Made by a program: the position numbers and the translations under genes
Shown: positions 41,966 to 45,419 of the stretch, one piece after another
Position numbering within the stretch: position 1 is the stretch's first letter
Layout: each line of letters starts with the position of its first letter
The notes under the pieces: generated by a model
What the model saw: the letters and a program-made list of their open reading frames with translations, nothing else
The model's database searches: none
Told to the model about the DNA's origin: nothing
Assembly: GCA_017642695.1 (NCBI GenBank)
Contig: JAEPQD010000002.1
Location: 372,001-436,000, forward strand
Direction of reading: 5' to 3'
Origin: Parvibaculum sp.
GTDB taxonomy: Bacteria; Pseudomonadota; Alphaproteobacteria; Parvibaculales; Parvibaculaceae
DNA: 64,000 bases

Positions 41966-42460
41966 TCAGCTCCGGCGCGCGTCGAGGGAGCGGCGGGGCG
42001 AGGGGCCGCGGTAGCCGGGTTTTTCCACGAAGTGGATCGGCTTCGAGACGGCGGCAACGATCGCTTCGTAGAGCACGTCCGCCGAGAGCGGCTTGGCGAT
42101 GTAGTCGGTGACGCCCTGGTCGCGCGCATGTGTGACCTTGTCGCGCCCGACATGGCCCGAAATCATCAGGATCGGTACATCGGGGTTCGCGCCTTCGGCA
42201 TCGCCCGCCGCGCGGATCGCACGCGTCATCTCGTAGCCGTCCATCGGTATCATCGCGCCGTCGGTGATGATGATGTCGGGTTTGTGCCGGGCAAAGGCCG
42301 CGAGGCCGCTTTCCCCGTCGCGTGTCTCGATGATGTGGACGACGCCCATCGTTTCGAGCAGTGCCGTGAGAAGGTTCCGCATCTCCTTGCTGTCTTCGAC
42401 GATGAGAACCTTGAGACGCCCGAAAAATCCGGAGTCCGCACTGGTCGGCGCCCCACTCAT
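41966..42460 (-). CDS. Single-domain response regulator A (receiver)
   Basis: 164-residue protein that is essentially one receiver domain: KVLIVEDSKEMRNLL with the acidic pocket, phospho-acceptor Asp in IIITDGAMIPMDGYEMTRAI, the Thr/Ser switch ILMISGHVG and Lys in YIAKPLSADVLYE. A C-terminal tail (KPIHFVEKPGYRGPSPRR) replaces an output domain. It overlaps the upstream Hpt gene by ATGA. The same tail pattern recurs in receiver B, so the two are paralogues. Confidence 0.9.
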   Translation of the reverse strand: MSGAPTSADSGFFGRLKVLIVEDSKEMRNLLTALLETMGVVHIIETRDGESGLAAFARHKPDIIITDGAMIPMDGYEMTRAIRAAGDAEGANPDVPILMISGHVGRDKVTHARDQGVTDYIAKPLSADVLYEAIVAAVSKPIHFVEKPGYRGPSPRRSLDARRS

Positions 42461-43005
42461 CCGAGCCTTCTCCGGTCGCGGCGGTTCGCCTCGATCAGGC
42501 GTTCGAGCGCTTCGAGCGTTTCCAGCGTGACGGCGGCGTCGGTGCGGGGATTTTCGATCGCATCGCGGATCGCGTCGACATGGAAGAGGATGACCGTTCC
42601 ATCCTTCAAGTCTTCCGCCTCGCAATTTTCGAGATAGCCGCAGAGCGAGTCGGCGAAGCGGCTGACCATCGGATGGCCGAAGGTGCCCGCGAGGCCGCGC
42701 ATGTCGTGGGCAAGGGAGTAGAGGCGGCCCCGCGCTTCCGAGTCGCCCTTGCAGGCGGGCTCGACAAGAATCTGCAACATGGCCACCTGGGACTTCAGCG
42801 CCTCGGCGTATTTCGTCTCGAGACCGCGGATCGTTTGCTGCATCTGGTCGAGCACGCGCGGATCGAGGCGCATCGGCGCCACATATTCGCGGCCCAGCTT
42901 GCGTTCGGCAATCGACGGCACACGGATGAAACGGACGTCGGGCGGCGTATCGCCGTCCTTGCTGTCCTGGCCGCCAAGCCTCGAGGGAAGTCTGTGTTCG
43001 GGCAT
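42457..43005 (-). CDS. Histidine phosphotransfer (Hpt) domain protein
   Basis: 182-residue protein. The first half is a helical region with no known domain; the second half contains LYSLAHDMRGLAGTFGHPMVSRFADSL, where the His in AHDMRGLAGTFG corresponds to the phosphorylated His of Hpt domains (consensus AHxLKGxA). No kinase or receiver domain is attached. It lies between two single-domain receiver genes in one operon (11-base gap to receiver B, 4-base overlap with receiver A), which suggests it passes phosphate between them. Confidence 0.85.
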   Translation of the reverse strand: MPEHRLPSRLGGQDSKDGDTPPDVRFIRVPSIAERKLGREYVAPMRLDPRVLDQMQQTIRGLETKYAEALKSQVAMLQILVEPACKGDSEARGRLYSLAHDMRGLAGTFGHPMVSRFADSLCGYLENCEAEDLKDGTVILFHVDAIRDAIENPRTDAAVTLETLEALERLIEANRRDRRRLG

Positions 43006-43016
43006 CGGTCCGCTCC

Positions 43017-43514
43017 TCAGATCAGCGCCACGCCGCCGCGGCGATCCTCGCCGGCGAAGGGGGTATTGCGGCGGCGACGGTCGGGACCGCGATAGGTGGG
43101 TGTTTCGACGAACTGGCGCGGCCGGTCGAGAACCTGGATAAGGCGCTCGTAGAGGCTGCGCGCGGAAATCGGCTTCGACAGGAATTCGGTGACGCCGATG
43201 TCGCGGGCGCGTTCGACGGAGGCGAGATCGGTGTGACCGGAAACCATGATGATCGGCACGAAGCCGAGCGCGTGGCCGCGCAGGCTGCGCAGGCGCTTGG
43301 CGAACATGAAGCCGTCACCCGGCACCATCGCCGCATCGGTCAGCACGATGTCGGGCTGGCAGGTGTTGAGGAGTTCCCATGCTTCCTCGCCGTCGATGGC
43401 GAGATAGACCCTCGTCACGCCGAGCGCCTGCAGAAGCGTCATCAGCAGGTGACGCATATAGGCGCTGTCGTCCACCACGAGAACCGTGAGTTTCTCGAAT
43501 ACGGAATGACTCAT
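43017..43514 (-). CDS. Single-domain response regulator B (receiver)
   Basis: 165-residue receiver-only protein: LTVLVVDDSAYMRHLL, phospho-acceptor Asp in IVLTDAAMVPGDGFMFA, IIMVSGHTDL, and Lys in EFLSKPISARSLYERL. The C-terminal tail PRQFVETPTYRGPDRRRR matches the tail of receiver A. First gene of the receiver-Hpt-receiver operon. I start it at 43514; a TTG five codons upstream is possible. Likely regulated partners are unknown, and no kinase gene is nearby. Confidence 0.9.
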   Translation of the reverse strand: MSHSVFEKLTVLVVDDSAYMRHLLMTLLQALGVTRVYLAIDGEEAWELLNTCQPDIVLTDAAMVPGDGFMFAKRLRSLRGHALGFVPIIMVSGHTDLASVERARDIGVTEFLSKPISARSLYERLIQVLDRPRQFVETPTYRGPDRRRRNTPFAGEDRRGGVALI

Positions 43515-43683: not shown

Positions 43684-44556
43684 TCAGGCGCTGGCCGAGA
43701 CGAGCCAGACGGCGCCGGCAAGACGGATTTCGCCGTTCGCTTCGTGTTTCGCGAGCGCCTCGCGGACGGCGTCCGTCGCACGGGCGCGGACCGCCTCCGG
43801 CTGTTCCTTCAGGGCGCGCGACAGGGGCCCGATCTCGAGCGTCTGTTCGAGTGCGAGCGCCACGGGGTCCGGGCCTTTCCCGAGGGTCAGTTCGGTGTCG
43901 AACGGGTCGATCGCGATGTCGCGGTAGCCTGCTTCCCTGAGGATGCCGCGGAAACGCTCGGGGTCGGCAAAGGCGAAGGGGCCCGGTGCACCGGGCACCG
44001 GCGGCTCCTGTTCTGGCAGATGCGGCAGGGCGGCGAAGAGCGGGACCGAGACCCAGCCGTTTTCCTTCATCGGGCGCCAGCACACGAACGCAACGCGGCC
44101 GGACGGCGCGAGGGCCTTCTTCATATGCGCGAAGGCGGCAGCTGGCTCGGCGAAGAACATGATGCCGAAGCGGGAGACGAGAAGGTCGAAGGTGTCCGCG
44201 CCGAAATCATGCGTGGCGGCGTCGGCGAGCATGAATTCCGCCGGGCTGCCGAGTTCCAACGCGCGGGCTTTCGCGCGGGCAACCATGGGGGCGGAAATGT
44301 CGACGCCCAGGGCGCGGCCGGATGCACCGGTCTTCGCGGCGGCGTCAAAGGTCGTTGCGCCGCAGCCGCAACCGACATCCATGATGCGTTCGCCGCGCTT
44401 GATGCCCGCAAGGTCCAGCACCGCATCGGAGAAAGGCTGGAGCATGCCGTCGAGCCGGTCCTGGAAGCGCGCCCAGCGTTCGCCCACATCACTGTTCCAG
44501 TAGTCGATCTGGTCGGCATTCGGGCCGGTGGCGGCGAGGGGGGAGGTCGTATTCAT
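43684..44556 (-). CDS. SAM-dependent class I methyltransferase
   Basis: 290-residue methyltransferase. The SAM-binding motif is IMDVGCGCGATTFDAA at about residues 58-73, followed by LGVDISAPMVARAKARA and MLADAATHDFGADTFDLLVSRFGIMFF, where D and the VSRFG block are conserved. The C-terminal part (residues 190-290) is substrate-specific and not recognised. GGAG ribosome site. Monocistronic. Substrate unknown; the UbiE/ubiquinone-like N-terminal half is common to many classes. Confidence 0.9.
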   Translation of the reverse strand: MNTTSPLAATGPNADQIDYWNSDVGERWARFQDRLDGMLQPFSDAVLDLAGIKRGERIMDVGCGCGATTFDAAAKTGASGRALGVDISAPMVARAKARALELGSPAEFMLADAATHDFGADTFDLLVSRFGIMFFAEPAAAFAHMKKALAPSGRVAFVCWRPMKENGWVSVPLFAALPHLPEQEPPVPGAPGPFAFADPERFRGILREAGYRDIAIDPFDTELTLGKGPDPVALALEQTLEIGPLSRALKEQPEAVRARATDAVREALAKHEANGEIRLAGAVWLVSASA

Positions 44557-44609: not shown

Positions 44610-45419
44610 TCAGTCCCCGCTTTCGGACTCACCCTTGTTCTGCAGGCGTTCGGCGAGGGCGCGCAGCTTGTCCTCGACCGCCCGCATTTCCGCGGGCATG
44701 GCCGGGTTCTGCCCCTCAGGCTCGGGACCGCCGACCGCGTCGGCGCCGGTCGGCAGATGGCTGCCGATGGCGCGGGGACCGGCGATTTCGGCCAGCCGGT
44801 CGAGGCGCTCGGAAATCAGGGCAGCGTGATCCGCGAAGCGGTCGCTCACCTTCGCGGCGGTTTCGCGTGCCGCTTCGATCTCGCGCGCGATGGTGGCGAT
44901 TTCCTCCTCGTCCGCAAAGGCATTGCGGGGCGGCGAGAGGGCAAGGCCCGTTTCGTCGGTGGTGAGGTTCACGACCTGGATCGCGATGCCGGAGCGGCCG
45001 TCCTGGTCGAAGGGAATATCGAAACTGGCGAGCTTGCCGCCGATGCGGCGGCCGGCGATGAGGTTGATGCGGTTGTGGGAGGCGGAACCCGCGATGGCGT
45101 CGATTTCGGCGCGGATGTCGTCGTAGCGCCCGGCAAGAAGGGCGCGGCGGCCGTCATCGGCGCTTGCGCCCGCATCGGCGACGAGGTCGGCCGCTTCGCG
45201 CAGGCGGTCGGTCAGCGCGTCGATGGCGAGCACGGAGGTTTCGATGGTCGAAAGTGCGGTCGCGATGCGCTGGCCGAGTTCGGCAGCGGTGAAGGAACCC
45301 GTATGGCCCGTGGCAGAGCGCAACGCGCGCCGCATGGCGGCCTGCGTCACGGACGGCGCCTGCTCGGCGGGCGGCGGCTCAAGCGCGCCCTTGCCCCTCA
45401 ATCGCGAAAGAATCCCCAT
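44610..45419 (-). CDS. Flagellin-like protein lacking the usual terminal D0 regions
   Basis: 269-residue protein. Residues about 50-120 look like the flagellin D1 helices: LSTIETSVLAIDALTDRLREA, then DDGRRALLAGRYDDIRAEIDAIAG and SASHNRINLIAG, which parallel the canonical ALQAEFDALRSEIDRIA-xx-FNGxxLL pattern. The C-terminal helix ARETAAKVSDRFADHAALISERLDRLAEIA parallels flagellin's C-terminal coil. However, the N-terminal 40 residues are Pro/Arg-rich and the true N- and C-terminal D0 sequences are missing. It is not near the flagellar cluster. It could be a divergent filament or hook-associated component, or a repurposed flagellin-like protein. Confidence 0.65.
   Translation of the reverse strand: MGILSRLRGKGALEPPPAEQAPSVTQAAMRRALRSATGHTGSFTAAELGQRIATALSTIETSVLAIDALTDRLREAADLVADAGASADDGRRALLAGRYDDIRAEIDAIAGSASHNRINLIAGRRIGGKLASFDIPFDQDGRSGIAIQVVNLTTDETGLALSPPRNAFADEEEIATIAREIEAARETAAKVSDRFADHAALISERLDRLAEIAGPRAIGSHLPTGADAVGGPEPEGQNPAMPAEMRAVEDKLRALAERLQNKGESESGD

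What the first reader, a model, noticed from the sequence alone, without database searches (positions are those of the whole stretch)
41966..43514. Kinase-less phosphorelay cassette: receiver, Hpt, receiver in one operon
Two paralogous single-domain receivers with the same unusual C-terminal tail (YRGPDRRR/YRGPSPRR) flank a stand-alone Hpt protein with an intact His. The genes overlap or nearly touch. Neither receiver has an output domain. Such an arrangement could buffer or branch phosphate flow from a remote hybrid kinase, with the matching tails acting as partner recognition. I do not know a described three-gene module of this form.
Basis: partly seen in the sequence, partly recalled or inferred. 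Interest (0 to 1): 0.72.

Follow-up and report, generated by a model that had tools for sequence, protein, structure and literature searches.

The report
c-di-GMP-type receivers paired with Hpt
Three adjacent bacterial genes make a phosphate-carrying protein and two small switch proteins, one of which has the kind of tail by which related proteins sense the messenger c-di-GMP, so two major bacterial signalling languages probably meet in one small, widely conserved gene unit.

Summary
R1 (43514-43017), Hpt (43005-42457) and R2 (42460-41966) lie head to tail on the minus strand, 11 nt apart and then overlapping by 4 nt, with phosphorylation residues intact. The three-gene order is conserved in Parvibaculum.

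R1's tail carries the tandem [YF]xGP[DE][RK]R element (ARR) by which Caulobacter Cle receivers bind c-di-GMP; it finds the solved CleD peptide 6sft (E 2.8e-4). R2's tail is a degenerate single copy (E 0.35), so the tails are not equivalent.

The Hpt is predicted to be a free CheA-P1-like bundle. Outside the family, 94 of 136 surveyed alphaproteobacterial relatives of it directly adjoin on the same strand, or are fused to, an ARR receiver. My literature searches found no description of this pairing; the Cle paper never uses the word Hpt.

Best reading: a remote kinase phosphorylates the Hpt, which exchanges phosphate with R1 and R2, while c-di-GMP acts on R1. Linkage and tail class are shown; phosphotransfer, c-di-GMP binding and output are inferred. 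Some pairs elsewhere have lost the receiver Asp or the Hpt His, so phosphotransfer is not the whole story everywhere. A new variant of a known kind.

The parts
43017..43514 (-). R1: single-domain receiver (acid pair D15 D16, phosphoacceptor D60, S92, K114) with alpha4 Arg R104
43038..43124 (-). R1 ARR tail, residues 131-159 (RPRQFVETPTYRGPDRRRRNTPFAGEDRR): tandem [YF]xGP[DE][RK]R-type element, second copy with E for P; predicted c-di-GMP site
   Evidence: PDB 6sft CleD peptide, E 2.8e-4
42457..43005 (-). Stand-alone Hpt, 182 aa, predicted CheA-P1-like bundle; phospho-His H100, R103, G104
42892..42936 (-). Hpt N-terminal conserved linear motif (VRFIRVPSIAERKLG, residues 24-38), the local form of a PPNxLxxKVG-like element seen in many relatives
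42706..42708 (-). Codon of the predicted Hpt phospho-histidine H100
41966..42460 (-). R2: single-domain receiver (E22 D23, D67, S101, K123), paralogue of R1, ATG overlapping the Hpt stop
41969..42031 (-). R2 degenerate tail, residues 144-164 (FVEKPGYRGPSPRRSLDARRS): one altered half-motif, conserved as about [YF]RGPSP[RKT]R in most of the genus
43684..44556 (-). Methyltransferase gene upstream on the same strand, conserved neighbour in the genus; membership in the unit not shown
44610..45419 (-). Weakly flagellin-like gene, same strand, conserved neighbour in the genus and in two other family loci; membership in the unit not shown

Best explanation
An operon-like unit for a small phosphotransfer node that also reads c-di-GMP. 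A kinase encoded elsewhere (a hybrid kinase, or a CheA-type kinase acting in trans) phosphorylates H100 of the free CheA-P1-like Hpt. The Hpt exchanges phosphate with its neighbour receivers R1 (D60) and R2 (D67). R1 is a Cle-type receiver: a c-di-GMP dimer binds its C-terminal ARR, helped by the alpha4 Arg R104, and changes the alpha4-beta5-alpha5 face that partners read. R1 is thus a coincidence detector of phosphorylation and c-di-GMP. R2, with a worn half-motif, is a branch that is weakly or not c-di-GMP-responsive. Output is by protein-protein contact, plausibly the flagellar switch FliM in flagellated species, but not only that. Shown: linkage, conserved residues, tail class; predicted: P1-like fold. 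Inferred: c-di-GMP binding by R1, phosphotransfer among the three, direction of flow, output.
For: R1 tail finds the CleD ARR peptide 6sft, and the residues corresponding to CleD R113, R142, R156 and R169 (R104, R133, R147, R159) are all present. R113, R156 and R169 are named in the passages; R142 and the register are my inference. Among 72 non-family ARR receivers of the first-surveyed loci: R104 66, R133 69, R147 71, R159 72. The Hpt model resembles CheA P1 best (Z 14.5; 6 of the top 7 VIA rows are CheA P1). Linkage: outside family f1, of 136 relatives of this Hpt, 77 follow an ARR receiver on the same strand, 15 loci carry a fusion to one (13; L250 and L256 on inspection), 1 has ARR on both sides, 1 precedes one; 2 have one on the other strand; 4 have a non-ARR receiver; 36 have none within 300 nt. 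Of 63 pairs measured in the first-surveyed loci, 40 lie within 30 nt if the Met nearest the receiver stop is taken as the start. Phospho residues intact throughout the genus. 55 of 56 genomes with ARR receivers (profile E <= 1e-45) carry GGDEF and 52 of 56 FliM.
Against: No binding or phosphotransfer was measured. Published tests found CleA and CleD activation independent of phosphorylation. In the first-surveyed loci 9 receiver-Hpt pairs have Asn for the receiver Asp while the Hpt His is intact (one clade in the tree), and 9 ARR-adjacent Hpts lack the His; two fused ones also read Leu there (L259, L267). Phospho-site integrity is no better in Hpt-linked (14 of 16) than in unlinked ARR receivers (23 of 27), so it does not itself point to the Hpt. 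R1 lost its tail in two genus members. G064, G102 (both 100% complete) and G079 (97%) have ARR-Hpt pairs but no FliM match. R1's second repeat lacks the Pro. 36 of 136 Hpts have no receiver beside them.
Confidence: 0.55

Rival explanations
1. One reading: two receivers with matching tails buffer or branch phosphate from a remote kinase, the tails being protein-protein recognition tags.
For: Conserved three-gene unit with intact phospho residues; both tails share YRGP; R2's [YF]RGPSP[RKT]R is conserved in most of the genus.
Against: R1's tail is of the ARR type with a known ligand, c-di-GMP. Tails are not equivalent and one can be lost without the other. Outside the family one receiver with one Hpt is the rule.
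Confidence: 0.12
2. Adaptor reading: the Hpt is mainly a binding partner of the ARR receiver (a docking or stoichiometric regulator), and phosphotransfer is optional or lost in many lineages; c-di-GMP binding decides whether receiver and Hpt are joined.
For: Pairs persist where the receiver Asp is Asn with Hpt His intact (9) or where the Hpt lacks its His (9); single-chain fusions in 15 of 136 loci; conserved N-terminal motif of the Hpt that could dock.
Against: In the genus and family every distinct R1 and Hpt keeps its Asp and His (29 of 29 each); most class members keep both (53 of 70 receiver-Hpt combinations).
Confidence: 0.2
3. Motor-effector reading: R1 (and R2) are Cle-like brakes on the flagellar motor controlled by c-di-GMP; the Hpt only drains phosphate from them or from CheY.
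For: CleA and CleD bind FliM (passages); FliM in 52 of 56 ARR-positive genomes against 33 of 86 others (not corrected for relatedness); own genome has FliM; flagellin-like neighbour.
Against: G064, G079 and G102 have ARR-Hpt pairs without a FliM match; the own genome's third ARR receiver sits by a gene that reads like a glycosyltransferase (my reading); no chemotaxis gene was among the five neighbours scanned.
Confidence: 0.13

Closest known systems
[quoted passage not shown] PMC5677366, passages and one section read; PDB 6sft)
   Same: Single receiver domain, ARR tail with tandem motif, alpha4 Arg; R1 tail aligns to the CleD peptide
   Different: The paper holds no occurrence of 'Hpt' and reports phosphorylation to be dispensable for CleA/CleD; here the receiver is linked to an Hpt and keeps its phospho residues. 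R2 has only a degenerate half-motif.
CheA P1 domain with CheY (e.g. CheA3 P1-CheY6 of Rhodobacter sphaeroides, 3kyj/3kyi)
   Same: Predicted fold of the Hpt (Z 14.2 and 13.8) and a transfer partner that is a single-domain receiver
   Different: Free-standing, with no kinase domain; has its own N-terminal motif; partner carries an ARR tail. In-trans phosphorylation of a P1 by another CheA is recalled, not checked.
HmrX (CC_1220), stand-alone Hpt of Caulobacter motile-sessile control (PMC11481889, abstract, outline and passages read)
   Same: Stand-alone alphaproteobacterial Hpt, described there as most like CheA P1, tied genetically to motility and adhesion
   Different: No ARR receiver neighbour is described in the passages read; sequence relationship to this Hpt was not tested here
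MrrA single-domain receiver hub (PMC5964349, search listing with start of abstract only)
   Same: A single-domain receiver as a phosphorelay hub in Alphaproteobacteria
   Different: No ARR tail or Hpt operon known to me (recalled, not tested)

Membership tests
Cle / ARR c-di-GMP receivers (R1) | Single receiver domain with a C-terminal extension | tested here: met
   One Response_reg match, residues 11-125 of 165
Cle / ARR c-di-GMP receivers (R1) | Tandem [YF]xGP[DE][RK]R with flanking N-terminal Arg | tested here: met
   Copy 1 YRGPDRR exact, flank R133; copy 2 FAGEDRR has E for P, so not exact; 6sft match E 2.8e-4
Cle / ARR c-di-GMP receivers (R1) | Conserved alpha4 Arg (CleD R113) | tested here: met
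   R104 in model helix 97-106, 29 of 29 distinct sequences; register to CleD inferred
Cle / ARR c-di-GMP receivers (R1) | Binds c-di-GMP | not testable with these tools
   Needs ITC, MST or NMR
Cle / ARR c-di-GMP receivers (R1) | Binds FliM when c-di-GMP-bound | not testable with these tools
   FliM is present in the genome; binding not testable
Cle / ARR c-di-GMP receivers (R2) | Tandem ARR motif | tested here: not met
   One altered copy YRGPSPRR, flank Arg replaced by Ile, second copy absent; 6sft E 0.35
Cle / ARR c-di-GMP receivers (R2) | Conserved alpha4 Arg | tested here: met
   R113 present, 25 of 28 distinct sequences, the three exceptions outside the genus
Hpt phosphotransfer proteins | Phospho-His in HxxKG-like motif | tested here: met
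   H100-D-M-R103-G104, invariant in 29 distinct genus and family sequences
Hpt phosphotransfer proteins | Hpt/CheA-P1 helical bundle | tested here: met
   Model mean pLDDT 78.5; CheA P1 is the best VIA match (Z 14.5, 117 residues, 2.5 A); Foldseek gave none with E <= 0.001; helical bundles score high in general
Hpt phosphotransfer proteins | Pfam PF01627 over its cut-off | tested here: not met
   20.6 against 24.6 bits; of 67 ARR-adjacent relatives 44 match at E <= 0.001
CheA histidine kinase | Kinase (HATPase) domain in the same protein | tested here: not met
   182 aa, Hpt match only besides a chance-level hit

The most novel reading that the evidence does not exclude
A class-wide c-di-GMP-gated phosphorelay node: the ARR tail of R1 controls whether the receiver can take phosphate from (or stay bound to) the free P1-like Hpt, so c-di-GMP decides whether phosphate flows to R1 or to the c-di-GMP-blind R2. 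Cle-type receivers would then be joint sensors of kinase state and c-di-GMP, with the Hpt as their overlooked cognate partner across Alphaproteobacteria.
Probability: 0.28. Interest if true: 0.82.

Novelty: new variant of a known kind. Interest (0 to 1): 0.62.

Why it matters
The Cle paper proposes that these receivers left phosphorylation control behind. Their repeated pairing and fusion with a phosphotransfer protein suggests otherwise for many of them and names a candidate missing partner. This Hpt family is easy to overlook: 23 of 67 ARR-adjacent members give no Pfam Hpt match at E 0.001, and an Azospirillum survey found no stand-alone phosphotransfer protein in two strains (passages). It makes a clear question testable with three purified proteins: does c-di-GMP gate phosphotransfer?

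Tried and rejected
A DNA pattern for the tail in the own genome was no more frequent than its reversed control (14 against 31) and was dropped. Neighbouring genes of the pair in other lineages (open frames only, three 12-kb loci and eight short ones) showed me no common theme. An attempt to show that the Hpt N-terminal motif is special to ARR-linked Hpts failed: a crude regex found it in 42 of 68 ARR-Hpt and 17 of 30 receiver-less Hpts, so it marks the Hpt family rather than the pair. Phospho-site integrity as a marker of Hpt linkage failed (14 of 16 against 23 of 27). NCBIfam gave no family for the Hpt. Foldseek alone gave no match with E <= 0.001 for the Hpt model. The R1 model was not searched for folds.

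Limits of the counts. The forward survey covers the 150 rows listed, whose list is cut at about E 1.5e-12. Eleven rows belong to family f1 and were left out (L097-L101, L153, L163 and four not fetched); three rows lay inside loci already held; the other 136 make the count. My first class counts (103 loci outside the family) rested on rows picked by hand; the skipped ones were then fetched. The residue counts use only the first set. Related genomes are included, so the 136 are not independent. The reverse count (68 of 94 tail-bearing receivers next to an Hpt) is biased, because profile A2 was built from Hpt-adjacent receivers and only its 96 best-ranked rows were used; 2 rows without tail coverage were dropped. 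Genomes in the co-occurrence test are not independent either. The spacing figures take the Met nearest the receiver stop and so flatter the closeness.

Paper searches in which I saw no description of an ARR receiver-Hpt pair: (open-licence PMC papers only, no bioRxiv collection; one search listed 20 of 457 papers and 20 of 285). This does not show that none exists.

Full report
WHAT IS THERE. On the minus strand, R1 (43514-43017, 165 aa), Hpt (43005-42457, 182 aa) and R2 (42460-41966, 164 aa) follow one another. R1 stop to Hpt start is 11 nt; the Hpt stop and R2 start overlap as ATGA; purine-rich stretches stand before the R1 and Hpt starts (my reading). R1 and R2 are Response_reg proteins; the Hpt scores below Pfam's Hpt cut-off (20.6 against 24.6 bits), and no kinase was among the five neighbouring proteins scanned with them. 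The genome is probably a Parvibaculum, judging from the record titles of its nearest relatives.

THE TAIL. Nesper et al. 2017 (PMC5677366; [quoted passage not shown] R1 ends RPRQFVETPTYRGPDRRRRNTPFAGEDRR before a short end. Its tail finds the CleD ARR peptide of PDB 6sft as best hit (E 2.8e-4). The register that puts Arg at both published CleD positions 156 and 169 makes them R147 and R159 of R1, with the flanking Arg R133 and the alpha4 Arg R104 (register inferred). The R1 model has helix 97-106 around R104 (mean pLDDT 85.0). R2's tail YRGPSPRRSLDARRS has one altered copy, Ile for the flanking Arg and no second copy (6sft E 0.35). R2's half-motif is still mostly conserved (Gly 25 of 28, first Pro 27 of 28, second Pro 28 of 28 distinct sequences, family members included), so it is probably not plain decay.

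CONSERVATION OF THE UNIT. In 61 genomes (own plus 60 relatives) the Hpt matched in all 27 of the genus, though in one (G024) only weakly (E 1.4e-7), which may be a different Hpt. Among 55 genus and family loci (29 and 26, which share many genomes), R1 was recovered in 55 and R2 in 53; L036 and L065, at contig ends, lack R2. Distinct R1: Asp and Lys 29 of 29; distinct Hpt: His, Arg, Gly 29 of 29; distinct R2: Asp and Lys 27 of 28, the exception being the family member L059, a pseudo-receiver. R1 has no tail in two genus members (L053, L056); R2 has none in L057-L059 of the family. The chromosomal setting (NUDIX, flagellin-like, methyltransferase, cassette, alpha/beta hydrolase, di-iron protein) is kept in much of the genus. 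In a tree of 111 receivers (131 columns, many forks unresolved) R1 is one group (support 99/88) and genus R2 another, with the family R2 placed apart on long branches; R1 and R2 are old paralogues, not a recent copy.

THE WIDER PATTERN. With a profile of the Hpt, 152 of 385 alphaproteobacterial genomes had matches. I fetched the neighbourhoods of the listed matches outside family f1 (136 loci) and classed them (L250 and L256 moved to the fused class after inspection): ARR receiver directly upstream on the same strand 77; loci with REC-ARR-Hpt fused in one open frame 15 (16 frames, L261 having two); ARR-Hpt-ARR 1 (L122, both tails full); Hpt-ARR 1; ARR on the opposite strand 2; non-ARR receiver 4; no receiver within 300 nt 36. 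So 94 of 136 are same-strand linked or fused to an ARR receiver. The chance of an ARR receiver within 1 kb is below about 0.015 by a generous estimate. Of 63 pairs measured in the first-surveyed loci, 40 lie within 30 nt and 59 within 100 nt, taking the nearest Met as start. The reverse, biased, count is 68 of 94; 26 ARR receivers had no Hpt, some in tandem pairs (L221, L228, L229). The three-gene form of the window is a Parvibaculaceae variant of this pair.

THE HPT. The model (mean pLDDT 78.5, N-terminal 20 residues unreliable) is most like CheA P1: VIA-align Z 14.5 for Salmonella CheA P1, 14.2 and 13.8 for CheA3 P1 with CheY6 of R. sphaeroides. Helical bundles score high in general, and Foldseek alone gave nothing with E <= 0.001, so I lean on the fold together with the conserved HxxRG and the AGTFG that follows. 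Before the bundle lies a conserved linear motif, PPNxLxxKVG-like in relatives and VPSIAERKLG here, present also in fused and receiver-less members. It may be a docking element; untested.

HOW IT MOST LIKELY WORKS. A remote kinase phosphorylates the Hpt; the Hpt exchanges phosphate with R1 and R2; c-di-GMP binds the R1 tail and changes which partners R1 can engage; R2 is a c-di-GMP-poor branch. Established from sequence: the genes, residues, tail class and linkage. Inferred: every transfer and binding step and the output. A motor output is plausible: FliM in 52 of 56 ARR-positive genomes against 33 of 86 others, GGDEF in 55 of 56 against 48 of 86 (not corrected for relatedness). But G064, G079 and G102 carry ARR-Hpt pairs (L142; L122, L155, L171; L178) without a FliM match, so it is not the only output.

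RESULTS AGAINST THE READING. Published work finds CleA and CleD activation independent of phosphorylation. In the first-surveyed loci 9 receiver-Hpt pairs have Asn for the receiver Asp with Hpt His intact, falling in one clade; 9 ARR-adjacent Hpts lack His (L122, L157, L168, L173, L176, L187, L188, L192, L198), and two fused ones read Leu there (L259, L267). In 2 cases (L187, L198) both receiver Asp and Hpt His are lost. Of 70 receiver-Hpt combinations 53 keep both (this includes one family locus and counts loci with two Hpts twice). Phospho-site integrity does not differ between Hpt-linked and unlinked ARR receivers (14 of 16 against 23 of 27). Hence the pair probably has some function that survives loss of phosphotransfer, and the adaptor rival stays alive.

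KNOWN OR NEW. ARR receivers and Hpt proteins are known. I found no description of their systematic pairing and fusion in the searches made, and the Cle paper has no occurrence of 'Hpt'. HmrX of Caulobacter (PMC11481889, abstract, outline and passages) is a stand-alone Hpt described as CheA-P1-like that affects motility and adhesion; whether it belongs to this family was not tested. Verdict: a real conserved unit and a new variant of a known kind, of more interest for the class-wide pairing than for the three-gene form itself.

Noticed in passing
L003 (own genome C1:1180772-1181218): Third ARR-tailed receiver of the genome (FTGPDRRRRDGKAPVKRRESDRGG), directly downstream on the same strand of a gene that reads like a family-2 glycosyltransferase (my reading, not searched); possibly a c-di-GMP control point for a polysaccharide.
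   Followed up: no
window 44610-45419 (-): Weakly flagellin-like protein (NCBIfam flagellin E 1.7e-5, far below cut-off) kept next to the cassette in the genus and in L084 and L086 of the family.
   Followed up: partly
L149, L177, L250, L251, L252, L254, L255, L256, L258, L259, L261, L262, L267, L270, L275; also L234, L236, L244: Single open frames joining receiver, ARR tail and Hpt bundle; natural fusions of the two partners.
   Followed up: partly
L130, L142, L146, L178, L189, L193, L196, L204, L205: A clade of ARR receivers with Asn for the phosphoacceptor Asp, still next to Hpts with intact His: pseudo-receivers beside apparently active phosphotransfer proteins.
   Followed up: partly
L221, L228, L229: Two ARR receivers in tandem with no Hpt beside them.
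   Followed up: no
P0002 residues 24-38 (window 42936-42892, -) and relatives: Conserved N-terminal linear motif of the Hpt family (PPNxLxxKVG-like), also in orphan and fused members; role unknown.
   Followed up: partly
G079 (L122, L155, L171, L210, L217, L237, L261): A 97% complete genome with many ARR receivers and Hpts but no FliM match: a candidate for non-motor roles.
   Followed up: no
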